Source: Halorubrum sp. CBA1229 (GTDB lineage: Archaea; Halobacteriota; Halobacteria; Halobacteriales; Haloferacaceae). From it: a DNA stretch of 64,000 nucleotides. Made by a program: the position numbers and the translations under genes. The stretch's first letter is position 1. Every line of letters begins with the position of its first letter. Shown in pieces: positions 6,139 to 50,202 of this stretch. The stretch is from positions 2,170,001 to 2,234,000 of the forward strand of contig NZ_CP054585.1 in the NCBI RefSeq assembly GCF_003721435.2, given 5' to 3'. A model generated the notes under the pieces. That model made no database searches and was not told the DNA's origin. It was given only the letters and a program-made list of their open reading frames with translations.

Positions 6139-6147
6139 CTTTTATAT
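6139..6147 (+). promoter_or_regulatory. TATA-like box of the usp gene
   Basis: CTTTTATAT lies about 25-30 nt before the ATG at 6170, consistent with a leaderless transcript and supporting that start. Confidence 0.5.
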
Positions 6148-6169
6148 TCCATGCCTGAATAGGTCGACC

Positions 6170-7657: not shown

Positions 7658-7860
7658 GGTTCCGGAATTCGCTCACACAAGCTAAACTCTTTGGGCCGTG
7701 ACACCCCTTGCCCGCCCGATTCGAGGCTGGAGCGCTCCCCGCGAACGACGGAGCTCGTCGCCCCCGATCATCCCGCTCACAGTCCCCAGCCCACTCCACT
7801 CACAGTTCTCGCGATTACCCCACTCACAACGCTTTTCACTCCCCGATGGGAGAGTGAGCC

Positions 7861-9881: not shown

Positions 9882-9882
9882 T

Positions 9883-9909
9883 ACGAGAAATTGGTTTCTC
9901 GTCGTTTTT
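9883..9909 (+). terminator. Hairpin plus T-run terminator after the CoA transferase gene
   Basis: Perfect 8-bp inverted repeat ACGAGAAA / TTTCTCGT with a TTGG loop (9883-9902), followed by CGTTTTT. It starts two bases after the stop codon, so it should end the crotonase-CoA transferase transcript. Confidence 0.75.
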
Positions 9910-9910
9910 G

Positions 9911-10134
9911 TTTATAAATGGCTAACTGCGGATCGGCGACGAACGCCTGCGCAGCCCCGACTGATCGCTTATAAATCGCCGCCAGCAGGTCAGTATTGAT
10001 TGCCTCCGAAGCCCCGGCCGCTCTTTTATAGGTAGTTGCTGACGGAGCAACGGTGAACACCTCCAAAGCCCCAGCCGCTCGGCTATACGTAGTTGCTGAC
10101 GGAGCAACGGTGAACACCTCCAAAGCCCCAGCCG
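9911..10134. repeat. Four-copy 57-bp tandem repeat with a TATA-like box in each unit
   Basis: TATA-like cores begin at 9912, 9969, 10026 and 10083, exactly 57 bp apart. The last two units are nearly identical over about 45 bp (10033-10077 and 10090-10134); the first two are diverged. Each unit ends with a GCCCC-rich segment (AGCCCC). Read in one minus-strand frame it gives a four-fold repeated peptide, but that frame has no gene-like start context and I treat it as non-coding. Confidence 0.85.
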
Positions 10135-10221
10135 TGAGGGGCGCGCACGCTCGCTGCGCTCCTCGGTCGCTCGCGTTGCTCGCTCCCTGCGGTGCTTACG
10201 TCGCCTCCGCGCCCCTCACGG
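10132..10221. repeat. 14-bp perfect inverted repeat bracketing a GC-rich segment
   Basis: CCGTGAGGGGCGCG at 10132-10145 is matched by its exact reverse complement at 10208-10221. The interior is rich in CGCTCG/CGAGCG-like words. The element abuts the last 57-bp repeat and resembles the GC-rich parts of dispersed non-coding elements in haloarchaeal genomes; copy number elsewhere is unknown. Confidence 0.7.
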
Positions 10222-10434
10222 CTGCCCCTTTGAGCCCCGCCCCGCACGGCACCGCAGCCTCACGCCTCCCCAACCTCGCGGCTCCCTCCGGTCGCCGCGT
10301 CCCTCGCGCGTGCTGCTCGGCCGCGAGGCGGCCTCGCAGGCACGCGCCACCGCACCGCCGCGTTCACTTATAAACACCGTCGCCGTCGCTCGTCGTTATT
10401 TAAATAGTGACCGACGCCCGAGAGCCGACCCGTC
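10222..10434. other. GC-rich non-coding spacer ending in an AT-rich box
   Basis: No convincing gene. The segment is GC-rich until about 10360 and then carries TTATAAACACCGTCGC and TATTTAAATAG (10368-10407), which resemble a second copy at 30791-30828. It lies beyond the 3' end of the large oxidase gene. Confidence 0.6.
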
Positions 10435-13398
10435 CTACGCCAGCGCGTCGGCGATCTTCTCGATCGGGTGCGGCGGCTTCTCGTCGTACTCGTCGCCGAT
10501 CTGCGTCCGGCAGGAGGCGCCGGGCGCGACGACGGCGTCGCCGTCGCTGTCGTCGATCCGGTCGAACAGCATCGAGCCGATCGCTTGGCTCATCGAGTAG
10601 TGCTCCGCCTCGTAGCCGAACGTGCCGGCCATCCCGCAGCAGGAGGTGTCGAGCGGGTCGACCCGGAACCCCGTCCGCCGGAGGACGCCGACCGCGTGGT
10701 GGTCCTTCTTCACCGACTTCTGGTGGCAGTGGCCGTGGTACGTGAGCCGCTCCGCGCCGCCGTCGACGTCGAGCGCCTCGTCGAGCCGGTGGGTGTCGAG
10801 GTACTCCAGCACGCCGTAGGCGCGCTCGGCCACCCGGGCCGCGTCGTCGGAGGAGAGCAGGTCGAGGTAGTCGGACTGAAGCATCACGGCGTCGGAGGGC
10901 TCGACCACGACGACGTCGCGCCCGTCGTCGACGTGCGACGCCAGCGTCGCGACGTTGGCTTCGGCCGTCTCGCGGGCCTTCCCGAGGAGCCCCTTCGAGT
11001 GCGCGGGGCGGCCGCTGTCGGTGATCTCCTCGGCGACCGCGACGTGGACCCCCGCCGCTTCGAGCACCCGGACCGCCGCCTTGCCGGCCTTGGGGTTGTT
11101 GTAGTTCGTGACCGTGTCCGGCACCAGCACGACGCGCCGGTCGGCGGCCGCTTCGCTCACGACCGACCCGCCGCGGTCCGCCCACCAGTCCACGAACGTC
11201 TCGCGGTGGAACGTCGGGAGCGAGCGCTCGCGGGCGATCCCGAGCGTCTTCTCCATGACGAGGCGCGCGCCCGGGACCTTGGTCCCGAGGTTCGACAGCG
11301 GCGCCGTCGCGCTCCCGAGCTTCGAGAGCGCGTCGACGTTCGCGAACAGCTTCGACCGGAGGTCGGCGCCGTGCTCCTCGTGGTGGGCGTGCTCGACCTC
11401 CACTTTCATCTTCGCCATGTCGACCTCGCTGGGGCAGTCGATCGAACACCCCTTACAGCCGACACAGAGGTCGAGCACCTCGCGCATGAACTCCGTGTCG
11501 AACTGCTCGCCCTCGGGGAGGTCCCCGCTCATCGCCTGCCTGAGCATGTTCGCGCGGCCGCGAGTGCTGGTTATCTCCTCCTGTGACGCGCGGTAGGTCG
11601 GGCACATCACGCCGCCCGCCCCGTCCTGACTGGTGCGACACCCGCCGCAGCCGTGGCAGAGCTCGGCCATTCCCTGGAAGCCGTTCTCGTTGTCCCACTC
11701 TAGGGCCGGCTCGAAGCCGGCGTCGAACTCGTACTCCTCCCCGAACCGGAGGTGCTCGCTCATGTCGTGGTCGCCGCAGACGCTCCCCGGGTTGAGCAGC
11801 CAGTCGGGGTCGAAGGCGGTCTTCAGGTCCTGAAACACGTGCCAGAGCCGGTCGCCGTACAGCTTCCGGTTCCACTGGGTCCGGGCGCGCCCGTCGCCGT
11901 GCTCGCCGGAGACCGACCCGCCGTACTTCACCGCCAGATCCGTGGCGGCGTCGGAGATGGACACCATCGTCTCGGTCCCCTCGGCGGTCTTCGTGTTGAT
12001 GAGCGGCCGGACGTGCATACAGCCCGGGCCGGCGTGCGCGTAGAAGCTCCCGAAGGTGTCGTGGTCCTCGAAGATCTGCTTGAACTCCCTGGTGTACTCC
12101 GGCAGGTGCTCCGGCGGGATCGCGAGGTCCTCGATGAACGCGATGTGCTTCTCGTCGCCGGTCCGCGACAGCAGGATCGGCGTCGACGCCTTCCGCATCT
12201 TCCAGAACTTCTTCTGGGTCTCCTCGTCGTACGCCGCCATCCCGTCGAACGCCAGGTCGCCGACCCGGTCCTCGAGGAGGTCGTCGACCTGCCGCTTGGC
12301 CGACTCTTCGTCGTCGGCGTAGAACTCGATCAGCAGGAACGAGTCGGTCTCGTCGGGTAACAGTCCGATGACGTCCTTGAACTCCTCGAGGTCGCGCGCC
12401 AGGTCGACGAGGACGCCGTCGAGCACCTCGACCGCCGCCGCGTCGTGTTCGAGGATCGGGCCGACGTCCTCCATCGCGTCGAGCAGGTCGTGGTACGTGA
12501 GCAGCGCGACCCCCTTCGTCGCCGGGATCGGTTCGAGGCTCACCTCGGCCTCGGTGACGATGGCGAGGGTCCCCTCGCTCCCGACGAGCAGGCGCGCGAG
12601 GTTGACGGTCCCCGACTCCGCCTCCTCGATCAGCACGTCGAGGTTGTACCCCGACACGTTCCGCTTGAGGTCGGGGTACCGCTCCTCGACCTCGTCGGCC
12701 TCCTCGTCGATGATCCGGACGACCGCCGCGTAGATGCGTTCCAGGAGCGTCCCGTCGGGGTCGGCCGCCCCGCGCAGCTCCGCGACCGAGACCTCGCCGA
12801 ACGTCTCGACGCTCCCGTCGGCCAGCACCGCCTCGACCTCCTCCACGTAGGCGTCCGTCTTCCCGTACTTCAGGGAGTGCGCCCCGGTCGTGTTGTTCCC
12901 GATGGCGCCGCCGAGCGCGCTCCGGTCCGCGGTCGACGGGTCGGGCGCGAACTTCAGGCCGTGTGGTTCGAGTGTCCTGTTCAGTTCGCCGAGCGTGATC
13001 CCCGTCCGGGCCCGGGCCCGCCCGTTCTCGGGGTCGACGTTGACCACGTCGGTCATGTACCGCGTGAAGTCCAAGACGATCGCCTCGTTCACCGACTGGC
13101 CGGCGAGGCTCGTCCCGCCGCCGCGGGGCAGCGCCGGGATCTCCTCCGCGGCGCAGTACTCCATCACGGCGGCGACGTCGTCGGTCGACGTCGGGTAGAC
13201 GACCCCGATCGGCGTCACCTCGTACGCGCTGGCGTCGGTCGCGTACATCTGCTTGGAGTACTCGTCGAAGCGCACGTCGCCGTCGACGAGCGGGTCGAGG
13301 TCGGCGACGAGCGCCGAGTCGTGTTCTGTCTCGCTCTGGTAGTCGTAGTTCGCCCGCGGGTCCGCGGACGGATCGGGTGCTGTGTTTTTAGATCCCAT
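10435..13398 (-). CDS. FAD/Fe-S D-2-hydroxyacid (D-lactate/glycolate) oxidase, GlcD-GlcF-type fusion
   Basis: This 987-residue protein joins two functions. The N-terminal half is a PCMH-type FAD domain (LPRGGGTSLAGQSV, LLVGSEGTLAIVTEAE) plus an FAD-oxidase C-terminal domain (SGEHGDGRARTQWNRKLYG, ending in the FDPDWLLNPG motif). The C-terminal half is GlcF/LutA-like: two 4Fe-4S clusters (CHGCGGC near 583, CVGCKGCSIDC near 645) and two cysteine-rich CCG regions (CHQKS and DTSCCGMAGTFGYE, the latter near 918). Such proteins oxidise D-lactate, glycolate or 2-hydroxyglutarate and pass electrons to the quinone pool at the membrane. Monocistronic; neighbours are central carbon genes. Confidence 0.9.
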   Translation of the reverse strand: MGSKNTAPDPSADPRANYDYQSETEHDSALVADLDPLVDGDVRFDEYSKQMYATDASAYEVTPIGVVYPTSTDDVAAVMEYCAAEEIPALPRGGGTSLAGQSVNEAIVLDFTRYMTDVVNVDPENGRARARTGITLGELNRTLEPHGLKFAPDPSTADRSALGGAIGNNTTGAHSLKYGKTDAYVEEVEAVLADGSVETFGEVSVAELRGAADPDGTLLERIYAAVVRIIDEEADEVEERYPDLKRNVSGYNLDVLIEEAESGTVNLARLLVGSEGTLAIVTEAEVSLEPIPATKGVALLTYHDLLDAMEDVGPILEHDAAAVEVLDGVLVDLARDLEEFKDVIGLLPDETDSFLLIEFYADDEESAKRQVDDLLEDRVGDLAFDGMAAYDEETQKKFWKMRKASTPILLSRTGDEKHIAFIEDLAIPPEHLPEYTREFKQIFEDHDTFGSFYAHAGPGCMHVRPLINTKTAEGTETMVSISDAATDLAVKYGGSVSGEHGDGRARTQWNRKLYGDRLWHVFQDLKTAFDPDWLLNPGSVCGDHDMSEHLRFGEEYEFDAGFEPALEWDNENGFQGMAELCHGCGGCRTSQDGAGGVMCPTYRASQEEITSTRGRANMLRQAMSGDLPEGEQFDTEFMREVLDLCVGCKGCSIDCPSEVDMAKMKVEVEHAHHEEHGADLRSKLFANVDALSKLGSATAPLSNLGTKVPGARLVMEKTLGIARERSLPTFHRETFVDWWADRGGSVVSEAAADRRVVLVPDTVTNYNNPKAGKAAVRVLEAAGVHVAVAEEITDSGRPAHSKGLLGKARETAEANVATLASHVDDGRDVVVVEPSDAVMLQSDYLDLLSSDDAARVAERAYGVLEYLDTHRLDEALDVDGGAERLTYHGHCHQKSVKKDHHAVGVLRRTGFRVDPLDTSCCGMAGTFGYEAEHYSMSQAIGSMLFDRIDDSDGDAVVAPGASCRTQIGDEYDEKPPHPIEKIADALA

Positions 13399-36304: not shown

Positions 36305-36316
36305 GTGTGTCGGGAG

Positions 36317-36610
36317 ATGAAACGGGAGCCCGCGTGGGTGTCGGCGATCAGGTTGGCGATGCTGGAGGGGCGCGTCACCGTCGAGGCCGTGATCAGGGAG
36401 GCGAACCTGATCGAGGGCCGCGAGCGCACCGTCGCCGACGTGTTGGAGACGATGCGCGAGCGCGACCTGCTCGCCGCCGTTGACGGCGGCGGAGAGGGCG
36501 CCGTCGACGCGTACGTCCCGGGACCGGTGCTGATCGAATCGGACCGGTTCGACCTGGATTTCGACCGGGCCTCCGAGGGGGGCGCCCACCGCTGGAACTC
36601 CGCGGTCTGA
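36317..36610 (+). CDS. Small haloarchaeal protein, winged-helix-like, function unknown
   Basis: A 97-residue protein (101 if the GTG at 36305 is used). Helical segments WVSAIRLAMLEGRVTVEAVIREAN then ERTVADVLETMRERDLL look like a small winged-helix fold with a wing around LLAAVDGGGEGAVDAYV, but I cannot assign a family. The upstream TATA-like box at 36271-36280 is about 30 nt before the GTG and 40 nt before the ATG, so either start is possible. Followed by a convergent spacer and an AbrB-type gene on the same strand. Confidence 0.55.
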   Translation: MKREPAWVSAIRLAMLEGRVTVEAVIREANLIEGRERTVADVLETMRERDLLAAVDGGGEGAVDAYVPGPVLIESDRFDLDFDRASEGGAHRWNSAV

Positions 36611-36947: not shown

Positions 36948-37694
36948 TCAGCCGTCGTCGCTGTCGCCGCGCTCGGGGAGGTCGGTCGGCCGGTCGACGT
37001 CGCGACGGACGCCCGGGTCGTCGACGGCGACGAGCGCGCTCGCGTCGTCCGTCAGCAGGATCTCGCGTCCGCCGACGTCGCCGTCGACGGCGGCGAGGCG
37101 GTCGAAGAAGCGCGCGTCGAACAGGACGGGGTTCCCGCGCGCTCCCTCATAGGCGGCCGCGAGGGCGGCGCCGGCCTCCGCGGCGTACGCCGCCACGAGC
37201 GTCTCGACGGTCTCCGGATCGACGAACGGCATGTCGCCCAGCGCGACGACCGCGGCGTCGACTTTCGCTTCGGCCTCGTCGCGGCCCGCTCCGGTCTTCT
37301 CGTACCCCTCACCCGCCTCCTCGCCGCCCTTCACCTCCCGAATCGCGTCGATACCAGTCCGAACCGACGTCGACTGTCCCGCCTCGTACGCGTCGTTGGT
37401 GACGGTTTTTACCGGGAGGTCGGCGACGGCGGCCCGGACCCGGTCGGCCTCGTGACCGACGACGACGACCACCGGGTCCGCTCCGGCGTCGACCAGCGTC
37501 CGGGCGGCGCGGCGCACGACCGGCTCTCCCTCCACGGTCGCGAGGAGCTTGTTGGCGTCCCCGAAGCGGCTGCTGGTCCCCGCCGCGAGCAGCACGCCGG
37601 CGACTCGGGGCGGGGCGGCGTCGCCCGCCTCGTCGCCGACGTCGTTGCCCGCGTCGAACGGGGGCCTCACGACCGGGAGCCCCTCGCCCGTCAT
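36948..37694 (-). CDS. MobA-like molybdenum cofactor nucleotidyltransferase
   Basis: A 248-residue NTP-transferase. The nucleotide-binding opening VAGVLLAAGTSSRFGDANKLLATVEGEPVVRR (about 30-60) and the DMPFVDPETVE metal-binding region are typical of MobA/MocA-type molybdopterin cytidylyl- or guanylyltransferases. MocA makes the cytidine form of the cofactor used by CO dehydrogenase and xanthine oxidase-type enzymes, which fits the cox cluster starting 1.4 kb away. Its start overlaps the moeA stop by four bases, so they are expressed together. The N-terminal about 25 residues are a disordered acidic tail. Confidence 0.88.
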   Translation of the reverse strand: MTGEGLPVVRPPFDAGNDVGDEAGDAAPPRVAGVLLAAGTSSRFGDANKLLATVEGEPVVRRAARTLVDAGADPVVVVVGHEADRVRAAVADLPVKTVTNDAYEAGQSTSVRTGIDAIREVKGGEEAGEGYEKTGAGRDEAEAKVDAAVVALGDMPFVDPETVETLVAAYAAEAGAALAAAYEGARGNPVLFDARFFDRLAAVDGDVGGREILLTDDASALVAVDDPGVRRDVDRPTDLPERGDSDDG

Positions 37695-38929
37695 CGCTCG
37701 ACGACGGGGTAGGGGACGACGGCGACCGTCTCGCCGGCCGACAGCCCGGACTCGGTGAGCACGAAGCCGTCGGCGCGGGTCGCCCGGGTGCTCGACGAGA
37801 GCACGCTCGGGTCGAACGTCTCCTCGTACACCGCGAGCGGCGAGTCCGCGTGTCCCAGCGGCGTCGCCTCGTCGCCGTCGAGCGTCACCGGAATCGCGTA
37901 GGTGAATCCCGGGACGGAGATACCGACGTCGCTCGTCACCGCGGCGTCGACGGTCGGGAGCGCGGTGCTCCCGGTGAAGAAGGGGCGCGCGACCAGCGAG
38001 GTCACGGTGTGCGCGCCGACCGGCTTACCGGGGATCGCGAAGACGACGGCGTCGCGGGCGTCGAGGGTCGCGACCGCGATCGGCTTGCCCGGCCGCAGCG
38101 CGACCCGGTGGAAGTGCACGGTCCCGAGCTCGCGGAGCGCGCGGACCACGTAGTCCTTGTCGCCGACGCTCGTACCCCCGGTCGTCATCACCACGTCGTG
38201 GTCGTCGGCAAGCCCGGCGATCCGGTCTCTGACCCGGTCGTACTCGTCCGGAACCGTGCCCTCGTACGTCGCCTCGCCGCCCCACCCGCGGACGAGCCCC
38301 GCGAGCATCGGCGAGTCGAGGTCGTCGCGGCGCCCCTCGTGGATCTCCGTCCCGGTCGCCAGCAGCCCGACCGAGAGCCGCTCGATCACGGGCACCTCCT
38401 CGATCCCGAGGTCGCCGAGCAGGACCGCGTCCTTCGCGCCGAGCCGCTCGCCCGCCGCGAACAGCCGCTCGCCCGCCGCGACGTTGCTGCCGCGCTCGTA
38501 GACGTACGTGCCCGGATCGGTCGGCGACCCGCTCAGCCGGCCGTCCTCGACGGTCGCCTCCTCCTGCTTGAGGACGGCGTTCGCCCCGGCCGGGAGCGGC
38601 GCGCCCGTGAAGATCCGGACGGCCTCGCCGTCGCCGATCTCCCCCGGGTCGCTCTCCGGGAAGACCTCCCGGTCGGCCAGCTCGTACGGGTACCCCGCGG
38701 TCGCGTCGAACGCGTAACCGTCCATCGTCGCGTGGCTCCGCGCGGGCACGTCGGTCGGCGCGTCGATCGGCTCGGCGAGGGTTCGCCCGGCGATCCGGTC
38801 GAGCGACACCGGCTCGGCCTCCCACCGGTCCAGCCACTCGCCGCGGAGGCCGCGGACGCGCTCCGCGGCCGCCTTCAGGGGCGTGATCTCGCCGTGGCCG
38901 TGGTCGTCGCTCTCGCCATCTCCGTTCAT
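37691..38929 (-). CDS. moeA: Molybdopterin molybdenumtransferase (MoeA-like)
   Basis: A 412-residue MoeA protein. Domain features are RTLAEPIDAPTDVPARSHATMDGYAF (N-terminal lobe), IFTGAPLPAGANAVLKQEEA, and the MPT-binding MoCF region GLLATGTEI to TTGGTSVGDKDYVV. It inserts molybdate into adenylylated molybdopterin. Upstream of the MobA-like gene and divergent from coxG, so it is placed to supply the molybdenum cofactor of the CO dehydrogenase. The initial residues (MNGDGESDDHGHGE) are a short polar extension. Length is normal. Confidence 0.93.
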   Translation of the reverse strand: MNGDGESDDHGHGEITPLKAAAERVRGLRGEWLDRWEAEPVSLDRIAGRTLAEPIDAPTDVPARSHATMDGYAFDATAGYPYELADREVFPESDPGEIGDGEAVRIFTGAPLPAGANAVLKQEEATVEDGRLSGSPTDPGTYVYERGSNVAAGERLFAAGERLGAKDAVLLGDLGIEEVPVIERLSVGLLATGTEIHEGRRDDLDSPMLAGLVRGWGGEATYEGTVPDEYDRVRDRIAGLADDHDVVMTTGGTSVGDKDYVVRALRELGTVHFHRVALRPGKPIAVATLDARDAVVFAIPGKPVGAHTVTSLVARPFFTGSTALPTVDAAVTSDVGISVPGFTYAIPVTLDGDEATPLGHADSPLAVYEETFDPSVLSSSTRATRADGFVLTESGLSAGETVAVVPYPVVER

Positions 38930-39715: not shown

Positions 39716-40605
39716 TGAAGTCCGCACCGTTCGAGCACCACGAACCCGACACGGTCGACGAGGCCGTCAGCCTGCTGGAGAGCCTCGACGACCCGACGAT
39801 CCTCGCCGGGGGCCAGAGCCTCGTGCCGATGCTCCGGTTCCGGCTCGCGAACCCCGACGTGGTCGTCGACATCAACGGCATCGACTCGCTTGACTACCTC
39901 CGCGAGGAGGACGGCTCCCTCCGGCTCGGCGCGCTCGCGCGCCACGCCGACGTGGAGGACTCGGACCTGATTGACGGGGAGTACGGCAGCTTCGCCGACG
40001 CCGCACCGCTCGTCGCCGACCCGCAGATCCGGAACCGCGGCACGGTCGTCGGCTCCGTCGCGCAGGCCGACCCGAAGGGCGACTGGGGGAGCATCCTCCT
40101 CGCCCACGAGGGCGAGGTGATCGCCACCGGTCCGGACGGCGACCGGGCGATCCCGGCGGACGAGTTCTTCCTGCTGCCGTACGACACGACGCTCGGCGAG
40201 CAGGAGCTGATCACGGAGATCCGCGTCCCTGCGCCGGGACCGAACGAGGGGAGTGCGTACCACAAGCTGAAGCGCAAGACCGGCGACTACGCGATGGCGG
40301 GCGTCGGCGCCCGGCTCGTGTTCGACGACGGCGTCATCGAGTCGGCGGGGATCGGGATGACCGCCGTCGACATCACCAACGCCCGCGCGACGGACGCCGA
40401 GGAACACCTCGAGGGCGAGCGGCCGAGCCCGGACCTGTTCGCGAAGGCCGGCGAGCTGGCCGCCGAGCAGTCGAATCCGGAGTCCGACGAGCACGGCGGC
40501 GCCGACTACAAGGAGCGGATGGTCGACGTTCTCGCCCAGCGCGCGCTGAGCGACGCCGCCGAGCGCGCTGGCACGGTGACGGTCGAACGGAGGGTCACAC
40601 AGTGA
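39715..40605 (+). CDS. coxM: Aerobic CO dehydrogenase medium (FAD) subunit
   Basis: A 296-residue FAD-binding subunit of the xanthine dehydrogenase/CODH family. The FAD-pyrophosphate motif AGGQSLVPM and the second flavin motif [11 protein letters not shown] are in the N-terminal domain; the C-terminal domain contains the [14 protein letters not shown] stretch. It takes electrons from the CoxS clusters and gives them to quinone or another acceptor. It starts in the coxG stop and ends with a GTGA overlap with coxS, so expression is coordinated. Confidence 0.92.
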
Positions 40606-41363
40606 CTGACGAACGCGAGATCACGCTGACGGTCAACGGCACCGAGCACACGATCGAGGTCGAGCCGCGGCGCCTGCTCGTCCACGCGATCCGGGAGGAC
40701 CTGGACATGACGGGCACGCACATCGGCTGCGACACGGGTAACTGCGGCGCCTGCACCGTCCTGAAGGACGGCGAGCCGATCAAGTCCTGCCTGATGTTCG
40801 CCGCGCAGGCCGACGGGGCGGAGATCCTCACCGTCGAGGGGATGGAGGACCTCCCCGAGGCCGACGACATCCACCCGCTCCAGGAGGGGTTCCGCGAGGA
40901 GCACGGCCTGCAGTGCGGCTACTGCACGCCGGGGATGCTGATGGCGGGCAAGGCGCTGCTGGACGAGCACCCCGACCCGGACGAGGAGACGATCCGCGAC
41001 GCGATCAGCGGGAACCTCTGTCGCTGTACCGGCTACCAGAACATCGTCCGCTCGATCGAGTACGCGGCCGACGAGCTGGAGAACCGGGCCGCCGCCGACG
41101 GCGGCGCGGTGGCGACCGACGGGACGGCGGACGCGGAGCCCGCGGCGTCGCCCGAGGGCGGCCACGCGACACCGGAGTTCGGCGGCGACGCCGACACGTT
41201 CTGCGGCCGCGAGGACTGCTGCGGCGGGCCGGACGGCGCGGACCCGTTCGACCGCGACGCCCTCCTCGACGACGCGGGCGACGGTGACGGCACTGGCGAC
41301 GCGGACGGCAGGGACGACGCCGACGCGGGCGCCGATGCGACCGACCGAGGTGACACCAAATGA
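40602..41363 (+). CDS. coxS: Aerobic CO dehydrogenase small 2Fe-2S subunit with acidic tail
   Basis: A 253-residue protein. The first about 160 residues are a normal CoxS: the plant-type 2Fe-2S motif [11 protein letters not shown] (Cys43, 48, 51) and the second cluster CGYCTPGML ... CRCTGYQN. Beyond this, about 90 extra residues form an acidic Ala/Asp/Gly-rich tail with an isolated cysteine patch CGREDCCGG near residues 204-212; ordinary CoxS lacks this tail. Starts with GTG overlapping coxM and ends overlapping coxL by four bases. Confidence 0.93.
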
Positions 41364-43855
41364 GTAGCGAACCAGACACCCCCGACGCGGAAACGGAGTA
41401 TCAGCACGACGAGGACGGCGGTCCCGACCCGGAGAAACACTGCGGCCACGGCCGCGGCGGGATGGGCGAGGAGGTGACGCGCAAGGAGGACAAGCGCTTC
41501 ATCACCGGCCGCGGCAACTACGTCGACGACATCAAGAAGCCGGGCATGCTCCACTGCGAGATCGTCCGGAGCCCGCACGCCCACGCCCGGATCGAGGAGA
41601 TCGACGGCTCCCGCGCCGAGGCGATGGACGACGTCGTCGCGGTGCTGACGGCCGAGGACTTACTGGAGCACGACCTCGCGACGATGCCGACACTGATGGA
41701 CGACACGCAGGACGTGCTCGTCAACGACAAGGTGAAGTTCCAGTCGCAGGAGGTCGCGGCCGTCATCGCGAAGGACCGCTACGCGGCGAAGGACGGGGCC
41801 GAGAAGGTCGAGGTCGACTACGACGTGCTCGACCCCGTCGTCGACGCCGAGGAGGCGCTCGAAGCGGACGCGCCGCTGGTCCGCGACGAGCTCGAGGACC
41901 AGGAGGACAACCACATCTTCGACTGGGACACCGGTGACAAGGAGGCCACCGACGAAGTGTTCGACCAGGCCGACGTCACCGTCGAGGAGGACATGCTGTA
42001 CCAGCGGCTCCACCCCGCCCCGATCGAGACGTGCGGCGCGGTCGCCGACTGGGACCCCGGGATGGACAAGATGACCGTCCACATGACGTCGCAGGCGCCC
42101 CACGCCCACCGCACCCTGTTCTCGCAGGTGTCGGGGATCCCGGAGCATAAGGTCCGGATCGTGAGCCCCGACGTCGGCGGCGGGTTCGGCAACAAGGTGC
42201 CGATCTACCCGGGGTACGTCGTCGCCGCGGCGGCGTCGTACGTCCTCGAACAGCCGGTGAAGTGGATCGAGGAGCGCTCCGAGAACATCCAGACGACCGG
42301 GTTCGCCCGCGACTACGACATGACCGGCGAGCTCGCGGCCACCGAGGACGGCGTCATCGAGGGCGTCAAGGTCGACGTGCTCGCCAACCACGGCGCGTAC
42401 AACGCGGCGGCCCAGCCGTCGAAGTTCCCGGCCGGCTTCTTCAACATCTTCACGGGCTCGTACGACATCGAGGCCGCGTACGGCTCGCTGACGGCCGCGT
42501 TCACCAACACCGCTCCCGGCGGCGTCGCCTACCGGTGCTCGTTCCGCGTCACGGAGGCGGTGTATCTCATCGAGCGCATGGTGAAGGTGCTCGCCGACGA
42601 GTTAGAGATGGACCCGGCGGAGATCCGCCGGCGGAACTTCATCCCCTCGGACGCGTTCCCGTACGAGTCCGCGACAGGCTGGAACTACGACTCCGGGAAC
42701 TACGAGAAGGCGCTCGACAAGGCCCTAGAGATGGCCGACTACGAGCACTACCGCGAGGAGCAGCAGCGGCGGATCGAGGAGGACGCGGACAAGCTCATCG
42801 GCATCGGCATCTCCTCGTTCACGGAGGTGGTCGGCGCCGGCCCCGGCAAGCAGTGCGACATCGCGGGCATCGAGATGTTCGACTCCGCGGACCTGCGCGT
42901 GAACCCGACCGGCAACGCCGTGTTGCGGGTCGGCGTCCAGACGCAGGGCCAGGGCCACGAGACCACCTTCGCGCAGATCGTCGCCGAGGAGCTCGGGATG
43001 GACGTGGACTCGATTACGGTCGAGCACGGCGACACCGACACCGAGCCGTACGGGCTCGGGACGTACGGCTCGCGGTCGACGCCCGTCGCGGGCGCGGCCG
43101 CCGCCGTCGCCGCGCGCAAGGTGCGCGACAAGGCGAAGTCGATCGCCGCCAACGAGCTGGAGGCCGCCGAGGAGGACATCGAGTGGGACCGCGAGTCCGG
43201 CGAGTTCCACGTCGCCGGCGCCCCCGACCGCTCGATCACCATCACGGAGATCGCGGCGGGCGCCTACATGAACCACCCCGGCGACGAGGAGCCCGGGCTG
43301 GAGGCCGTGAACTACTACGACCCGCCGGAGATGACGTACCCGTTCGGCTCGTACATCGTCGTCGTCGAGGTCGACCGCGAGACCGGCGAGGTCGACTTCG
43401 AGAAGTTCGTCGCGGTCGACGACTGCGGGAACCGCATCAACCCGATGATCATCGAGGGGCAGATCCACGGCGGGCTCGCCCAGGGGATCGGCACCGCGAT
43501 GTTGGAGAAGGTCACCTACGACGACAACGGCAACGTCACCGGCGGCGACTTCATGAACTACCTGCTGCCGACGGCCAACGAGATCCCGAACTTCGAGACG
43601 GGCCACACCGTCACGCCGTCGCCGCACCACCCGATCGGCGCGAAGGGCGTCGGCGAGTCGCCCACCGTCGGGTCGCCGCCGGCGATCGTCAACGCCGTCG
43701 TCGACGCGATGAGCCACGCCGGCGTCTCCCACGTCGAGATGCCGATGACGCCGGACGTCGTCTGGGAGACGCTCGACGAGGCCGGGCTGGCCCACCAGCC
43801 CGCCCACAACGTCGAGTTCGACCTCGGCGACGACGCCGAACCGGCCGACGACTGA
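41360..43855 (+). CDS. coxL: Aerobic CO dehydrogenase large molybdenum subunit, form I-like
   Basis: An 831-residue molybdenum subunit of the xanthine oxidase family. The active-site loop reads AYRCSFR with Cys393, the form I CO dehydrogenase signature in which the cysteine binds the Cu of the Cu-S-Mo centre (Cys388 in Oligotropha), rather than the AYRGAGR loop of form II proteins. Other family features include [20 protein letters not shown] near the start, [15 protein letters not shown] and [18 protein letters not shown] at the molybdopterin site. The enzyme oxidises CO to CO2 and feeds electrons to respiration. C-terminal end is acidic. Confidence 0.95.
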
Positions 43856-43956: not shown

Positions 43957-45207
43957 ATGACACACGACGAGACCGAACACGACGGGACCGACGAGCCCGC
44001 ACACGACGGAGCCGGCAGCCACGAGACCGACGAACCGAGCGGGACCGCGACGAAGATCGACGACGGCGACGTCTCCGCGTTGGAGGCGGAGCTGACCCAG
44101 CGCCGGGAGCCGTACGCGCGAGCGACGATCGTCCGGCGCGAGCCCCCGGTGTCGGCGAACGTCGGCGACCGCGCGGTCGTGACCGCCGACGGCGATATCC
44201 ACGGCTGGGTCGGCGGCGCGGCCTGCGCGCAGTCGATCGTGGCGACGCAGGGCGTCGCGGCGATCGAGGAGGGGACCCCCCGACTGGTCGGGATCGCCCC
44301 CGACCCGGACGACATCGACCGCCCGGGGCTCGACGCCTTCCCGATGACGTGTCACAGCGAGGGCGTGCTGGAGCTGTTCATCGAGCCGGTGACGCCGACG
44401 ACCGAGCTCGTCGTCGTCGGCGACTCGCCGGTGACCCGGTCGCTCGCGCGGCTGGCCGACGAGCTCGCGGTCGACGTGACGCTCGTCGTCGCCGACGGCG
44501 ACGCGGACCGCGACGTGCCCGCGTCGACGCGGGTGCTCGACACGGTCGACCACGAGGCGATCGCCGACGCCGTCGGCCCCGCGCCGCTCGTCCTCGTCGC
44601 CTCGATGGGCGAGTACGACGCGCGCGGCGTCGCCGCCGGCGTCCTCGCGGACGCGCCCTACGTCGGCCTCGTCGCCAGCGACGAGCGGGCGGCCGAGGTG
44701 ACCGAGCGCACCGCGGGGCTGCTCGACCGCGACGTGGGGGAGGTCGTCGCGGCGGTGACGAACCCCGCGGGCGTCGACGTGGCCGCCTACACCCCGGCGG
44801 CGATCGCGGCGAGCCTGCTCGCCGAGGTCGTCGACGAGCGGTCGAAGGCGAGTCCGGCGACCGGTGGCGGCGCGGCCGCCGCGGGCGCCGTCGCCGAGAG
44901 GGACGAGAGCGACGCTGGTGACGGGGATGACGAGGGCCGCGAGGCGGCCGCGGGCCACGAGGCAGCCGCGGGCGACACCGCCGGAACCGACGACGGCGGA
45001 GACGAAGCCGACACCGAGAGCGGCGGCGACGCCGACGAAGCCGACGAGTCAGCGATCGACCCGGTCTGCGGTATGACCGTCGACCCGGCGACCGCGGACG
45101 CCTCGGTCGAGCACGACGGCGAGACGTACCACTTCTGCTGTCACGGCTGCGCCGACTCGTTCGCGAACGACCCGGCGTCGTACCTCGAGGAGGGGGCCGA
45201 GGCGTGA
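43957..45207 (+). CDS. XdhC/CoxF-like maturation protein fused to a C-terminal YHS metal-binding domain
   Basis: A 416-residue protein in two parts. The first about 300 residues are XdhC-like: an XdhC N-terminal domain (VVTADGDIHGWVGGAACAQSIV) and a Rossmann domain (ELVVVGDSPVTRSLARLADEL) as in CODH maturation proteins. A disordered acidic linker follows, and residues 367-412 are a YHS domain (DPVCGMTVDPATA, YHFCCHGCADSF) with metal-binding cysteines. YHS domains occur in copper P-type ATPases and other metal-handling proteins. Position directly after coxL suggests a role in building the Cu-S-Mo centre. The acidic N-terminal tail is about 35 residues. The start at 43957 gives MTHDETEHD. Confidence 0.82.
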   Translation: MTHDETEHDGTDEPAHDGAGSHETDEPSGTATKIDDGDVSALEAELTQRREPYARATIVRREPPVSANVGDRAVVTADGDIHGWVGGAACAQSIVATQGVAAIEEGTPRLVGIAPDPDDIDRPGLDAFPMTCHSEGVLELFIEPVTPTTELVVVGDSPVTRSLARLADELAVDVTLVVADGDADRDVPASTRVLDTVDHEAIADAVGPAPLVLVASMGEYDARGVAAGVLADAPYVGLVASDERAAEVTERTAGLLDRDVGEVVAAVTNPAGVDVAAYTPAAIAASLLAEVVDERSKASPATGGGAAAAGAVAERDESDAGDGDDEGREAAAGHEAAAGDTAGTDDGGDEADTESGGDADEADESAIDPVCGMTVDPATADASVEHDGETYHFCCHGCADSFANDPASYLEEGAEA

Positions 45208-46202
45208 GCGGGGAGCTCGACGGGGGCCCCTTCGACTCGCTCACCGAGGCGGAGCTCCGCGAGCGGTTCGAGGAGACCGACTACGTCGCCGACGACCGCA
45301 CGGTGACGACCGTCGACCTCGCCCTCCGGCTGGGGCGCCCGCTGCTCGTCGAGGGGCCGCCGGGCAGCGGGAAGACGGAGCTCGGCAAGACGCTCGCCGA
45401 GGGGTTCGACACGGAGCTGATCCGGCTCCAGTGCTACGAGGGGCTCACCGCGGAGAACGCCCTCTACGAGTGGAACTACACGAAGCAGCTGCTCGCCGTG
45501 CAGGCCGACGAGGGGACGGTCGCCGGCGGCGCCGCGACGAACGGCGACGCCGGGGCGGCGGGCGGGCGCGACCGAGAGGCCGGCGCCGCGGGCGCCGGCT
45601 CGGTGTTCGGCGAGGAGTACCTCCTCGAACGCCCCCTGCTGCGCGCGCTCCGCAACTCGGAGGGGCGGCCGCCGGTGCTGCTGATCGACGAGATCGACCG
45701 CGCCGACGAGGAGTTCGAGGCGTTCCTCTTAGAGCTGCTCTCGGACTTTCAGGTGTCGATCCCGGAGTACGGCACCGTGAGCGCGTCGACGCCCCCGATC
45801 GTGATCCTCACGTCGAACCGGACGCGGGGGCTGAGCGACGCGCTGAAGCGCCGGTGTCTCTACCTCCACGTCGAGCCGCCGTCGTTCGAGACGGAGTACG
45901 AGATCGTCCGCCGGAAGGTGCCGGAGCTGGACGCCGCGGTCGCCGCGGAGGTGTGCTCGGTGGTCGAGCGGCTGCGCGAGGAGTCGTTCCTCAAGCGCCC
46001 GGGCGTCGCCGAGACGCTCGACTGGGCGCGCGCGGTCGCCGCGCTTCGTCACGACGACGCGGACGAGCCGCTCGCGCCCGACGTGATCGAGCGGACGATC
46101 GGCTGCCTGCTGAAGGAGGCCGAGGACGTGAGCCGTGTCGACGCGGAACTGCTCGAGCGGCTCCACGACGCCGCGAGCGCGGCGGCGGAACGGGTCGAGT
46201 GA
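45204..46202 (+). CDS. coxD: CoxD-type MoxR AAA+ ATPase
   Basis: A 332-residue MoxR-family AAA+ ATPase. Walker A is GPPGSGKT (51-58), Walker B is LLIDEIDRADEEF, and sensor 1 is ILTSNRT. A low-complexity Gly/Ala insert (about 101-130) separates Walker A from the rest. CoxD in Oligotropha is needed to sulfurate the Mo-Cu centre of CO dehydrogenase and works with CoxE. It overlaps the XdhC-YHS gene by four bases (GTGA) and starts with GTG. Confidence 0.92.
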   Translation: MSGELDGGPFDSLTEAELRERFEETDYVADDRTVTTVDLALRLGRPLLVEGPPGSGKTELGKTLAEGFDTELIRLQCYEGLTAENALYEWNYTKQLLAVQADEGTVAGGAATNGDAGAAGGRDREAGAAGAGSVFGEEYLLERPLLRALRNSEGRPPVLLIDEIDRADEEFEAFLLELLSDFQVSIPEYGTVSASTPPIVILTSNRTRGLSDALKRRCLYLHVEPPSFETEYEIVRRKVPELDAAVAAEVCSVVERLREESFLKRPGVAETLDWARAVAALRHDDADEPLAPDVIERTIGCLLKEAEDVSRVDAELLERLHDAASAAAERVE

Positions 46203-46204
46203 CA

Positions 46205-47635
46205 ATGGCGAGCTCCGACGGCACCGAGACGGAAACGCCCGACTTCCCGGCGGCGAGGCGACACCTCCTGACGGAGCTGATCCGGTTCGTCGCGGTGCTC
46301 CGGCGCGACGGCGTCGCCGTGCCGGCCTCCGGCACCCTCGACGCCGCCCGCGCGCTCGCGGCGGTCGGGATCGCCGACGAGCGGCGGGTCGAGGCGGCGC
46401 TCCGCGCGAGCCTGCTCGCCGAGACCGCCGACGGCGACGCCTTCGACGAGGCGTTCCCGACGTTCTGGCACCGGATCCGCAGCGGGCTCGATCGGATCGC
46501 CACCGCCCACGACGGGCCGTCGCCGGCGGGCGACGAGGGCGCCGACGGCGACGACCGCGAGGCGGACGACGCGGCGCCGGCCGACGACTCGGAGCGCGAC
46601 GACGCGGCGGAACCGGGGCTGCTCGACGACGCCGAGCCGCCGGAGATGGACGCCGACGGCGACGGCGATCCGACGGTGAAGATCCCGACCGACCGGCGCC
46701 ACGTCGCCGGCGATCGGCCGACCGACGAGTCGCGCGAGGAGTCGGACGGCCGGCGGTACAGCGCGGTGGGCGAGAGCGCGCTCGTCGAGGCCGACGTCCC
46801 GGCCCCGTCGAGCGAGGAGCGCGCGGCCGCCGGGCGGTTCGTCGACGCGCTCTCGTCGCTGCCCGGCCGGCGCCGCCGGCGGTCACCGACCGGCCCGGCC
46901 GTCGACGCGCGGGGCGCGCTGCGGGCGAGCCTCCAGACCGGGGGCGCGCCGATCGACCTCCCGCGGGACGCCCCGACGCCGAGCGAGCTGCGGTGCTGTC
47001 TGCTCGTCGACGTCAGCGGGTCGGTGCTCGACACCGTCGACCGGGGTGCGCTGCTCGCGCTCGGGGAGCGGGTCGCGACGAGCGCCCGCGACGCCCGCGT
47101 CTTCCTCTTCGACACCGACTTCGCCGAGGCGACGGCGGCGTTCGCGGACCCGGCCCGCTCGCCGGCCGACGCGCTCCGCGCCGCGGAGATCGAGTGGGGC
47201 GGAGGGACGAAGATCGGCCACGCGCTCGGCGAGCTGCGCCGGACAGCCCCGCACGCCGTCGACCGCCGGACGGTCGTCGTCGTCGTGAGCGACGGGCTCG
47301 ACGTCGGCGATCCGGCCCTGTTCACCGACGGGATCACGTGGCTCTCCGACCGGGCCGACGGCGTCGTCTGGCTCAACCCGCTCGCCGTCTCACCGTCGTT
47401 CGAGCCGGCCTCGCGCGGGATGAGCGACGCGGCCCCGTACGTCGACGGGCTGTTCGGGTTCGCCGCGGCGAGCGACCTCGCGGAGGCCGCCCGTCAGATC
47501 GAACGCCGGGGGCTCGGGGGGCCCATCGGTTACGAGCACGACCCGCGCCGGACCGGCGGCGCGCCCGGGGGCGGACGCGGTCGCACCGACGACGAGACGG
47601 GGACCGGCGACGCCGGCGAGGGGGGTGTCGTATGA
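46205..47635 (+). CDS. coxE: CoxE-type von Willebrand A domain protein
   Basis: A 476-residue protein. The C-terminal half is a VWA domain with a metal-ion-dependent adhesion site: DVSGS (269-273) then the downstream GGTKIGHA and VVVVVSDGLDVGDP. The first about 230 residues contain a helical N-terminal region and a long acidic disordered linker. CoxE is partner to the CoxD ATPase in CO dehydrogenase maturation. The end overlaps the next gene (ATGA). Confidence 0.9.
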   Translation: MASSDGTETETPDFPAARRHLLTELIRFVAVLRRDGVAVPASGTLDAARALAAVGIADERRVEAALRASLLAETADGDAFDEAFPTFWHRIRSGLDRIATAHDGPSPAGDEGADGDDREADDAAPADDSERDDAAEPGLLDDAEPPEMDADGDGDPTVKIPTDRRHVAGDRPTDESREESDGRRYSAVGESALVEADVPAPSSEERAAAGRFVDALSSLPGRRRRRSPTGPAVDARGALRASLQTGGAPIDLPRDAPTPSELRCCLLVDVSGSVLDTVDRGALLALGERVATSARDARVFLFDTDFAEATAAFADPARSPADALRAAEIEWGGGTKIGHALGELRRTAPHAVDRRTVVVVVSDGLDVGDPALFTDGITWLSDRADGVVWLNPLAVSPSFEPASRGMSDAAPYVDGLFGFAAASDLAEAARQIERRGLGGPIGYEHDPRRTGGAPGGGRGRTDDETGTGDAGEGGVV

Positions 47636-48507
47636 GCCGCGAGCGCGATCGCACCGACACCGACGCGGAGTGGCCCGGTCCAGTCCTGCGGGCGACGCTC
47701 GACGCGCTCCGCGACCGCGGCGCGCTCTCGGAGGTTTCCCTCGGCCGAGTCACGGTCGGCGACGCCGTCGCGCTCGTGGAGCTCGCGGCCGGAGGCGAAC
47801 GGGAGAGCCGGGACGGAGGACGACCCGCGGCCGGGCTCGCGCACCTGCCCGAGGACGCGTCGCCGACCCCCCCGGCCGACGTGGAGGGGCTGCTGGCGCC
47901 GCTGCGACCGGGTGAGGGGAGTTCCGCGTCAGCGGCCAGGGCCCTCGGCGCACGCTCGCTGGCGGTGGCGACGCTGAACGCGTGCGCGGCGCCGCTACTC
48001 GGCTGGCGGGACGGAGACCCGATGGCGCTGCTCGACCCGTCGGTCGAGACGGTCGCGACGGTCGGGCTGTTCCGCCCGGCGTTCCGGAAGTTCGACGGCG
48101 TCGAGGTCCGCGTCGTCGAGCGCGACCCCGTCGACCCGGCGACGGTGTCGACGCCCGCCGGCGTCTCGCTGCGGTCGTTCATCCCCGCGGAGGCCGCGGC
48201 CGCGATGGAGGGGGCGGACGTGGTCTTCGTCACCGGCTCGACGCTCGTCTACGGCGGGATCGAGCGATACCTCGACGCCGCGCCCGCGTCGGCGACGGTT
48301 GTCGTGGTCGGCGCGACCGCCTCGTCGCTCCCGGACCCGCTGTTCGACCGCGGCGTCGACGTCGTCGCCGGCGCGGCGGTTGACGACCCCGTTCGGACGC
48401 GGCACGCGGTGGCGGGCGGCGCCTGCGGGACGGACCTGCACGACCGCGGCGTTCGAAAGGTGTACGCGGCGCGCGACGCGCCGGCGACCATCGACCTGCA
48501 ACACTGA
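47632..48507 (+). CDS. DUF364 family protein inside the cox cluster
   Basis: A 291-residue protein of the DUF364 type: a Rossmann-like C-terminal half (VATVGLFRPAFRKF, ADVVFVTGSTLVYGGIERYLDAAP, then VVVGATASSLPDPLFDRG) matches the domain named putative heavy-metal chelation domain. The first about 100 residues are an acidic, less conserved part. It starts in coxE's stop codon (ATGA), so it is clearly in the operon. Not a usual member of bacterial cox clusters that I know. Metal delivery is a plausible but unproven role. Confidence 0.75.
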   Translation: MSRERDRTDTDAEWPGPVLRATLDALRDRGALSEVSLGRVTVGDAVALVELAAGGERESRDGGRPAAGLAHLPEDASPTPPADVEGLLAPLRPGEGSSASAARALGARSLAVATLNACAAPLLGWRDGDPMALLDPSVETVATVGLFRPAFRKFDGVEVRVVERDPVDPATVSTPAGVSLRSFIPAEAAAAMEGADVVFVTGSTLVYGGIERYLDAAPASATVVVVGATASSLPDPLFDRGVDVVAGAAVDDPVRTRHAVAGGACGTDLHDRGVRKVYAARDAPATIDLQH

Positions 48508-48508: not shown

Positions 48509-49741
48509 ATGACAGCAAGCAACTGGAGCGTACCGGAGACCGAGGTGGTACAGCGCGTTCGCGACCGACTCGACGCCGACGGCACCGACGTCCTCGCGAC
48601 GATCGTCGACGTCGAGGGGAACGCCTACCGTCGCCCGGGAGCGAAGATGCTCCTCGACGACGACGGGGCGGGCGTCGGCTCGATCACGGCGGGCTGTATC
48701 GAGGACGACCTGCTCGCCGCCGCGGAGACGGTCCGCGAGACGGGGCGCCCCGACCGGGTCACCTACGACCTGATGGAGGACGAGGACGACGTCTGGGGGC
48801 TCGGCGTGGGCTGTAACGGCGTAATCGACGTCCTCCTGGAACCGTTAGACGAGACGTACCGCCCGGCGGTCGAGTCGTTCGACGCCGGCCGCGACGTCGC
48901 CGTGCTCACGGTACTCTCCGCGGGCGACGACGGCGGCAACCACGACGCGGGCGACGGCGCGAGCGGTGACGGCGGGGACACGGACCGCGGTCGCCTCGGC
49001 GAGCGCGCCTACTACCATCCCGACGAGGACCGGTTCACGCTCCCCGACGGGTCGCCCGCCGACGGGTGGCCGACCGAGGCGCTCGCGGGGCCGGCGTCGG
49101 ACCTCGCCGCGCGCGGCGCCGCGGACGTCGTCACGGTCGAGGACGGGGCGGGGGCAACGCTGGAGGCCTTCGTCGACGGGCTCGCCGCCCCGGACGACCT
49201 CGTCGTCTTCGGGACGGGCCACGACGTCGGTCCGGTCGTCGAACTGGGCGAGCGGAACGACTTCCGGGTCACCGTCGTCGGCTTCCGCGGCGGGGTCGAT
49301 CTCGACGCGCGGTTCCCCGACGCCCACCGGACCGTGACGACGTCGCCGGCGGGGGTCGACGACGCGCTCGATATCGACGACCGGACGCACGCGGTCGTGA
49401 TGACGCACAACTTCGTCGACGACCGCATCGCCGTCGAGGCGCTGCTGCGCTCGCCGGCGCCGTACGTCGGCCTGATGGGGCCGCGGGAGCGGTTCGAGGA
49501 GATGCTGGAGGCGTACGACGACGAGGGGACGACGTTCGACGAGTCGGAGCTCGCGTCGCTGTACACGCCCGTCGGACTGGACCTCGGCGGCGGCTCGCCG
49601 TACCAGATCGCCCACAGCATCGTGGGCGAAGCGCTCGCCGTCAGCAACGGCCGAACGCCGCGGCACTTACGAGAGCGCGAGGGGCACATCCACGACCGCG
49701 TCGACGTCGAGTCGCGCGAGCCCGAGGCGCCGAGTCGGTGA
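48509..49741 (+). CDS. XdhC/CoxI-like molybdoenzyme maturation protein
   Basis: A 410-residue XdhC-family protein: N-terminal XdhC_CoxI domain (ATIVDVEGNAYRRPGAKMLL, then SITAGCIEDDLLAAAETV and VWGLGVGCNGVIDVLLEP) and a C-terminal Rossmann domain (DDLVVFGTGHDVGPVVELGERN, THAVVMTHNFVDDRIAVEALL, PYVGLMGPRERFEEML). XdhC-like proteins insert sulfurated molybdenum cofactor into their partner enzyme. It ends the co-directional cox block; the two XdhC-like proteins differ, this one being canonical and the other fused to YHS. ATG start at 48509. Confidence 0.9.
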   Translation: MTASNWSVPETEVVQRVRDRLDADGTDVLATIVDVEGNAYRRPGAKMLLDDDGAGVGSITAGCIEDDLLAAAETVRETGRPDRVTYDLMEDEDDVWGLGVGCNGVIDVLLEPLDETYRPAVESFDAGRDVAVLTVLSAGDDGGNHDAGDGASGDGGDTDRGRLGERAYYHPDEDRFTLPDGSPADGWPTEALAGPASDLAARGAADVVTVEDGAGATLEAFVDGLAAPDDLVVFGTGHDVGPVVELGERNDFRVTVVGFRGGVDLDARFPDAHRTVTTSPAGVDDALDIDDRTHAVVMTHNFVDDRIAVEALLRSPAPYVGLMGPRERFEEMLEAYDDEGTTFDESELASLYTPVGLDLGGGSPYQIAHSIVGEALAVSNGRTPRHLREREGHIHDRVDVESREPEAPSR

Positions 49742-49791: not shown

Positions 49792-50202
49792 TCAGAGCGA
49801 CAGGTGCGAGGTCGATCCCGGGTCGTCGTCGGTTCCCCCCTCGTGCCGGAACGAGTAGCCGTCGTCGGTCAGGAAGACGGCGCCGTCGTCGACGGCGACC
49901 TCGACGTCGCGGAGCGTCGTTCCGGCCGCCGGGCCGTTGTCGCACTCGCCGGAGCAGGCGTCGAACAGCGACCCGTGGCGCGGGCAGATCACCTCGCCGT
50001 CCCGCATCGGCACGCCGTCGCCCGTGTCGAACCGCTGGCTCTCGTGCGGGCAGGTGTTGACCCACGCCCGGACTCCGGGCGCCTCGTCGCACGGGACGAT
50101 CACGATCTCTCGGTCGTTCGTGAACGGGTCCGCGGCCGTGAAGCGGTACGACCCCCGCTCGGTGACGGTCTCGACATCGGCGAGCTTCGTCCCGTCTGGC
50201 AT
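49792..50202 (-). CDS. Rieske 2Fe-2S protein
   Basis: A 136-residue single Rieske domain. The two ligand boxes are CPHESQRF (Cys51, His53) and CPRHGSLF (Cys73, His76), separated as expected for a ferredoxin-type Rieske fold. No membrane segment is visible, so it is soluble. It might act as an electron carrier for an oxygenase or, given its position, for the adjacent CO dehydrogenase; it is on the opposite strand, facing the cox block. Monocistronic and divergent from the esterase gene. Confidence 0.92.
   Translation of the reverse strand: MPDGTKLADVETVTERGSYRFTAADPFTNDREIVIVPCDEAPGVRAWVNTCPHESQRFDTGDGVPMRDGEVICPRHGSLFDACSGECDNGPAAGTTLRDVEVAVDDGAVFLTDDGYSFRHEGGTDDDPGSTSHLSL

What the first reader, a model, noticed from the sequence alone, without database searches (positions are those of the whole stretch)
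47632..48507. DUF364 gene embedded in a cox operon
Seen: overlaps coxE (ATGA) and lies two bases before the terminal XdhC gene. Known: DUF364 is annotated as a possible metal chelation domain and is not among the standard cox genes. Inferred: extra maturation step, perhaps metal or sulfur delivery.
Basis: partly seen in the sequence, partly recalled or inferred. Interest (0 to 1): 0.6.

Follow-up and report, generated by a model that had tools for sequence, protein, structure and literature searches.

The report
Extra gene in haloarchaeal CO-oxidation operons
Salt-loving archaea that carry the copper-containing CO-oxidising enzyme nearly always carry one extra, unstudied gene inside its operon, and its pattern of occurrence suggests it helps build that enzyme's molybdenum-copper centre.

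Summary
The gene is real: window 47632-48507 (+), 291 aa, PF04016 at 90.3 bits (cut-off 23), with the two-domain DUF364 fold. It overlaps coxE by ATGA; one base separates its stop from the terminal XdhC gene. It is no oddity of one genome: of 392 genomes of the order, 33 have form I coxL; 31 of these have DUF364, 30 of them 1.5-4.5 kb downstream of coxL on the same strand. A 4-bp overlap with coxE was scored in 28 of 34 loci. None of 20 haloarchaeal form II-like loci (AYRGAGR) has DUF364 or the CoxF-like XdhC-YHS gene, though 16 have CoxD and CoxE; 0 of 8 bacterial form I loci have DUF364. In three compact loci it sits directly behind the CoxF-like gene while CoxD, CoxE and XdhC2 are absent. 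Copper sets form I apart, so I infer a step in Mo-Cu cluster assembly, with CoxF, rather than sulfur delivery. Against: one near-complete form I genome lacks it, and nine genomes have DUF364 without form I coxL, five of them branching inside the cox clade. No biochemistry exists. New accessory gene of a known system; mechanism inferred.

The parts
47632..48507 (+). DUF364 (PF04016) protein, 291 aa, the finding
   Evidence: structure
47632..47635 (+). ATGA overlap of the CoxE stop and the DUF364 start
   Evidence: same kind of overlap scored in 28 of 34 loci; also in the annotated N. bangense record
46199..47635 (+). CoxE, VWA_CoxE protein
   Evidence: PF05762 E 5.1e-37
45204..46202 (+). CoxD, MoxR-type AAA ATPase
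   Evidence: 49% to Afipia pHCG3 CoxD
43957..45207 (+). XdhC1 with C-terminal YHS domain, CoxF-like
   Evidence: PF02625, PF13478, PF04945; nearer to bacterial CoxF-type than CoxI-type proteins
41360..43855 (+). CoxL, form I CO dehydrogenase large subunit (AYRCSFR)
   Evidence: TIGR02416 1210.7 bits; motif
40602..41363 (+). CoxS, [2Fe-2S] subunit
   Evidence: PF01799, PF00111
39718..40605 (+). CoxM, FAD subunit
   Evidence: PF00941, PF03450
39113..39715 (+). CoxG
   Evidence: PF06240 E 8e-19
48509..49741 (+). XdhC2, terminal XdhC/CoxI-type gene, shared with form II-like loci
37691..38929 (-). MoeA, divergent, next to the cox operon
   Evidence: PF03453, PF00994; found at many of the other loci
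36948..37694 (-). ORF overlapping MoeA, by synteny the counterpart of the MocA-like nucleotidyltransferase of N. bangense
   Evidence: the N. bangense counterpart scores best to TIGR03310 MocA (below cut-off); the window copy itself was not scanned

Best explanation
The gene is a conserved accessory gene of the haloarchaeal form I (Mo-Cu) CO dehydrogenase operon, overlapping CoxE at stop/start. Shown: family, fold, place, conservation, form I specificity within the loci read, purifying selection. [quoted passage not shown] It would join a pathway (CoxD sulfuration, CoxE/CoxF copper insertion) described in Oligotropha, which does without it.
For: Of 33 form I coxL genomes among 392, 31 hold DUF364 and 30 hold it 1.5-4.5 kb downstream on the same strand. 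CoxE/DUF364 4-bp overlap in 28 of 34 loci. Specificity: 0 of 20 haloarchaeal form II-like loci have DUF364 or the CoxF-like gene, while CoxD and CoxE are in 16 and XdhC2-type in 14 (motif; profile search 0 of 21 with the H. magnesiiphilum locus added). Compact loci (G146, G223, G384) keep CoxG-M-S-L-CoxF-DUF364 without CoxD, CoxE, XdhC2. Copper role of CoxF/CoxE and sulfuration role of CoxD: PMC4240915 (abstract, passages, section 23). Family-wide pocket positions kept (N116, G145, E163, T201), and C265 and H270 present in 34 of 35 cox-linked rows, the remaining row being a gap there. dN/dS of DUF364 0.25-0.43 in eight pairs. Elsewhere in the phylum DUF364 lies by metal-handling genes: ABC transporters, MinD/Fer4 NTPases, a heavy-metal exporter family, a QRPTase. 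L081 is Halobaculum WSA2, whose CO oxidation is measured (PMC5743682, passages).
Against: G113 (99% complete) has form I coxL, the CoxF-like gene, CoxD and CoxE but no DUF364 anywhere, so it is not needed in every lineage; G165 also scores none, but its locus is cut off by the contig end at CoxD. Nine genomes have DUF364 over the cut-off without form I coxL; G112 has no MoCoBD_2 (molybdenum hydroxylase) match at all, yet its DUF364 keeps C265/H270 and nests in the cox clade. The standalone pair L049/L073 is under similar constraint (dN/dS 0.32), which suggests a use outside CODH. Bacterial form I loci lack it. Two pocket positions of the family (Asp180/Thr182 of Dhaf4260) are Tyr/Gly here, so the chemistry may differ. 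Copper binding is not shown; whether H71, C265 and H270 are close in space was not checked.
Confidence: 0.45

Rival explanations
1. Cofactor handling: the protein binds a pterin or nucleotide (such as the molybdopterin cytosine dinucleotide cofactor) in its cleft and supports Moco loading or stability, like an extra XdhC-type chaperone.
For: The crystallographers proposed a flavin- or pterin-like ligand from the pocket (PMC2954201, parts 1-3 of 4). MoeA and a MocA-like gene are next door.
Against: Form II-like loci have MoeA (7 of 20), CoxD, CoxE and XdhC but no DUF364; whether their enzymes use the same cofactor was not tested here.
Confidence: 0.17
2. Sulfur delivery to molybdenum, the other half of the first reader's guess.
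For: The operon contains the sulfuration factor CoxD (role from PMC4240915).
Against: CoxD is present without DUF364 in 16 of 20 form II-like loci, and DUF364 stays in three compact loci from which CoxD is absent; no sulfurtransferase or rhodanese family hit.
Confidence: 0.08
3. Metal homeostasis or sensing tied to CO oxidation (protecting the cell from, or storing, copper or molybdenum), not maturation of the enzyme.
For: DUF364 elsewhere lies beside transporters and an exporter family; standalone copies exist.
Against: Fixed place inside the maturation gene block with a stop/start overlap.
Confidence: 0.15
4. Passenger: a gene trapped in the operon early in haloarchaeal history and kept by operon structure, with a function unrelated to CO.
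For: Fastest-changing or nearly so of the six operon genes compared; missing from G113; standalone copies under constraint.
Against: Retained across many genera at 48-65% identity, kept in compact loci that lack other genes, absent from the parallel form II-like operons.
Confidence: 0.15

Closest known systems
DUF364 family PF04016 (3l5o Dhaf4260, 3npg PH1506)
   Same: Pfam score 90.3 bits; same two-domain fold over 226-237 residues (Z 23.8 and 25.2, rmsd 2.6); most pocket positions conserved
   Different: 17-18% identity to the solved members; Tyr-Gly-Gly in place of the family's Asn/Asp-x-Thr/Ser; sits in a cox operon rather than beside transporters
Form I cox operon of Afipia (Oligotropha) carboxidovorans pHCG3
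   Same: coxM-S-L, MoxR ATPase CoxD, VWA protein CoxE, XdhC-type CoxF and CoxI, CoxG (letters assigned from order, recalled)
   Different: No DUF364; CoxF follows CoxE there, while the CoxF-like gene follows coxL here and carries a YHS domain that Afipia's lacks
Haloarchaeal form II-like operons (H. magnesiiphilum plasmid and 20 others)
   Same: MoeA, CoxG, CoxS, CoxL, CoxM, CoxD, CoxE, XdhC in the fullest ones
   Different: AYRGAGR instead of AYRCSFR; no DUF364 and no CoxF-like XdhC-YHS

Membership tests
DUF364 (PF04016) | Score over the curated Pfam cut-off | tested here: met
   90.3 bits against 23
DUF364 (PF04016) | Enolase-N-like plus Rossmann-like two-domain fold | tested here: met
   AlphaFold2 model pLDDT 86.2; 3npg_A Z 25.2 over 237, 3l5o_A Z 23.8 over 226 residues
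DUF364 (PF04016) | Conserved interdomain pocket residues named by Miller et al. | tested here: inconclusive
   Equivalents of Gly129, Glu148, Asn83, Thr174 kept; Asp180 and Thr182 are Tyr207 and Gly209 (equivalents by my own count, assuming a 19-residue tag in the PDB sequence)
DUF364 (PF04016) | Metal chelation or catalysis | not testable with these tools
   Pfam name only; no assay seen in the listings
Form I CO dehydrogenase operon | CoxL over the TIGR02416 cut-off | tested here: met
   1210.7 against 991.15
Form I CO dehydrogenase operon | AYxCSFR active-site motif with the copper-binding Cys (motif and its meaning recalled) | tested here: met
   AYRCSFR in 38 of 38 form I CoxL read, window included
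Form I CO dehydrogenase operon | CO oxidation by the host | not testable with these tools
   Measured only for a relative, Halobaculum WSA2 (PMC5743682, passages)
Known cox maturation proteins (CoxD, E, F, G, I) | Match of the DUF364 protein to their families (AAA, VWA_CoxE, XdhC, CoxG) | tested here: not met
   PF04016 is the only Pfam match at E 0.01

The most novel reading that the evidence does not exclude
This DUF364 clade is a dedicated copper(I) assembly factor for the Mo-S-Cu centre of archaeal CO dehydrogenase, working with CoxF, with metal bound through the clade's own His71, Cys265 and His270; it would be the first function for any DUF364 protein and one of the missing factors of this cluster's assembly.
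Probability: 0.27. Interest if true: 0.75.

Novelty: new variant of a known kind. Interest (0 to 1): 0.55.

Why it matters
How copper and sulfur are put into the unique cluster of aerobic Mo-Cu CO dehydrogenase is still open: Pelzmann et al. end by calling for the missing maturation factors (PMC4240915, section 23). A gene that tracks the copper form of the enzyme, and not its copper-less cousin in related organisms, is a specific, testable candidate, and would also give a first foothold on a structurally solved but functionless family. The two operon types within haloarchaea are a ready natural experiment.

Tried and rejected
Sequence comparison of the single protein with PDB chains gave only 3l5o at E 0.67; the profile gave 3npg at 7e-12. 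A weak NCBIfam hit to the zinc-binding protein AztC (22 bits, cut-off 350, fainter in N. bangense) was set aside. The promoter/terminator scan around the gene found nothing and uses a bacterial model. Foldseek/VIA rows beyond the DUF364 structures (cysteine desulfurases at Z 10.2, dehydrogenases) were treated as common Rossmann or PLP-transferase-like arrangements, not as function. XdhC structures did not appear among the rows shown; that excludes nothing. Chance occurrence and a stray insertion in one genome were rejected. The tally of distinct form I loci read (DUF364 in 32 of 35, CoxF-like 35, CoxD 31, CoxE 30, XdhC2 28) is biased, since many loci were found with DUF364 as the query; the unbiased count is 31 (30 linked) of 33.

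Rows dropped or lost before counts: G244 and a second G188 match, both under the Pfam cut-off. G156, one of the 33, has a fragmented CoxL under the TIGR02416 cut-off. In the residue table 18 non-haloarchaeal rows were used, of which m_L103 is plainly a wrong-strand ORF; two loci (L104, L112) gave no centre ORF and were left out. Of 104 neighbour ORFs listed, 86 went into the Pfam batch. In one search three of the six misses (L066, L070, L083) show an ATGA or GTGA at the stop that my script did not accept as a start; I left the count at 28. Only 20 of the 22 form II-like loci L020-L041 were fetched with flanks. The YHS hit of the Deinococcus CoxF-type protein is just under the Pfam cut-off (29.1 against 30.3).

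Literature: full-text searches for DUF364 and for COG2014, DUF4213, PF04016, PF13938, and cox or haloarchaea searches, listed no paper that by title or start of abstract links DUF364 with cox; this covers open-licence PMC only, and searches listed 40 of 44 and 12 of 41 papers. I read PMC2954201 (parts 1-3 of 4), PMC4240915 (outline with abstract, passages, section 23) and PMC5743682 (passages); the rest are listings only.

Full report
What is there. The window comes from a haloarchaeon; its closest named relatives by the DUF364 protein are Halorubrum strains (about 80-82% identity). The plus strand carries CoxG 39113, CoxM 39718, CoxS 40602, CoxL 41360, XdhC1-YHS 43957, CoxD 45204, CoxE 46199, DUF364 47632-48507 and XdhC2 48509-49741, several neighbours overlapping by four bases, with MoeA divergent upstream. 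CoxL is form I by score and by its AYRCSFR motif. The DUF364 protein scores 90.3 bits to PF04016.

Fold. The AlphaFold2 model (pLDDT 86.2) matches the two solved DUF364 structures over almost its whole length (3npg_A Z 25.2, 3l5o_A Z 23.8), so the N-terminal half, which the Pfam match does not cover, belongs to the family fold too. Those structures have no known function; the authors of 3l5o inferred a ligand pocket between the domains and a link to metal uptake from gene neighbourhoods (PMC2954201).

Conservation at cox loci. In 392 genomes of the order, form I coxL was found in 33 and DUF364 over the cut-off in 40. They meet in 31 genomes and are linked, same strand, 1.5-4.5 kb apart, in 30. 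The exceptions are G002 (different contigs of an 86% complete assembly), G113 and G165 (no DUF364). A named-genome scan with the protein returned 28 loci: 21 contain form I coxL, two end at a contig edge beside CoxE and XdhC2, one (L084) has CoxD-CoxE-DUF364-XdhC2 with only a distant CoxL piece, one has XdhC2 alone (L068) and three have no cox gene in the stretch (L073, L087, L088). The stop of CoxE and the start of DUF364 overlap by four bases in 28 of 34 loci scored.

Specificity for the copper enzyme. Haloarchaea also carry operons for a form II-like enzyme with AYRGAGR in place of AYRCSFR. I read 20 such loci with flanks: CoxD 16, CoxE 16, XdhC2-type 14, CoxG 13, MoeA 7, DUF364 0, CoxF-like XdhC-YHS 0; a profile search finds no DUF364 in these 20 and the H. 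magnesiiphilum locus (0 of 21). So CoxD, CoxE and XdhC are shared between the two enzyme types, and the CoxF-like gene and DUF364 are the two that go with form I. The CoxF assignment rests on blastp: XdhC1 is closer to the CoxF-position proteins of Thermomicrobium, Paraburkholderia, Deinococcus and Afipia than to CoxI, and three of those four also show YHS, one just under the cut-off. None of eight bacterial form I loci has DUF364, so it is an archaeal addition as far as this sample goes.

Compact and decayed loci. In G146, G223 and G384 the locus reads CoxG-M-S-L-CoxF-DUF364 without CoxD, CoxE and XdhC2; those genomes have a CoxE elsewhere, close to another molybdenum hydroxylase. DUF364 therefore keeps company with CoxL and CoxF more than with CoxD and CoxE. 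G267 is the converse: MoeA, CoxD, CoxE, DUF364 and XdhC2 with no form I coxL. G347 keeps XdhC2-DUF364; G112, G145 and G350 keep DUF364 alone. In the tree of 45 proteins the cox-type clade is separated from the three proteins of genus code g19 with full support, and the copies of G112, G145, G350, G347 and G267 lie among cox-linked ones; the places of G002 and G283 are unresolved. This reads as loss of the enzyme with the accessory gene kept, and the one lone pair tested is still constrained (dN/dS 0.32). Those copies are a real problem for a strictly CODH-bound role.

Residues. Positions conserved family-wide are kept in the haloarchaeal proteins (G68, N116, G145, P149, E163, T201, G227), but the Asn/Asp-x-Thr/Ser motif of the pocket is Tyr-Gly-Gly. 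C265 and H270 are present in 34 of 35 cox-linked rows, the other being a gap; the g19 proteins without cox have Ser at 265 but keep H270. H71 is present in 41 of 46 haloarchaeal rows. These are candidate copper ligands by inference only.

Wider family. Neighbours of DUF364 in 18 loci of other members of the phylum (86 ORFs scanned) include ABC transporters with periplasmic binding proteins, ferredoxin-MinD type NTPases, a heavy-metal exporter family and a QRPTase that resembles ModD, the last name being my recall. Many other neighbours were not metal-related, such as methyltransferases. That agrees with the metal theme in PMC2954201 without proving it.

Mechanism. In Oligotropha, CoxD is needed for sulfuration and CoxE and CoxF for copper insertion (PMC4240915). 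Because the form II-like loci keep CoxD, CoxE and XdhC without DUF364, and because the gene stays with CoxF in compact loci, the copper step is the simplest place for it. The step from place to function is inference, and G113 shows that the operon can persist without the gene.

Verdict. I found no paper linking DUF364 to cox in the searches named.

Noticed in passing
window 36305-36610 (+): A 101-aa ORF with relatives at 10 other fetched loci, all of them cox loci, upstream of cox (REPAWV...GAHRW); no Pfam match for the two copies scanned. A candidate small regulator of the operon (function guessed).
   Followed up: partly
L089, L091, L092 (G146, G223, G384): Compact form I loci, CoxG-M-S-L-CoxF-DUF364, without CoxD, CoxE and XdhC2 at the locus.
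   Followed up: partly
L097 (G267) 5647-11411: MoeA-CoxD-CoxE-DUF364-XdhC2 block in a genome without form I coxL.
   Followed up: partly
L076 and L077: Natronorubrum bangense: the cox cluster appears with identical match coordinates on both the plasmid and the chromosome record.
   Followed up: no
L094 (G156): cox cluster in which CoxL, the CoxF-like gene, XdhC2 and CoxG match in several pieces, as if broken by frameshifts or sequencing errors.
   Followed up: no
window 49792-50202 (-): Small protein that looks like a Rieske-type ferredoxin (by eye), convergent with XdhC2; also near cox in L061 and L062.
   Followed up: no
L043, L044, L096 (genus code g19): A separate haloarchaeal DUF364 type beside a 252-253 aa protein with weak KaiC similarity in the copy scanned; in two of them a large molybdopterin-type oxidoreductase cluster lies nearby (by eye).
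   Followed up: partly
L116 (G431) and L119 (G415): DUF364 beside ferredoxin-MinD type NTPases; in L116 also near an ArsP_2 heavy-metal exporter family protein.
   Followed up: partly
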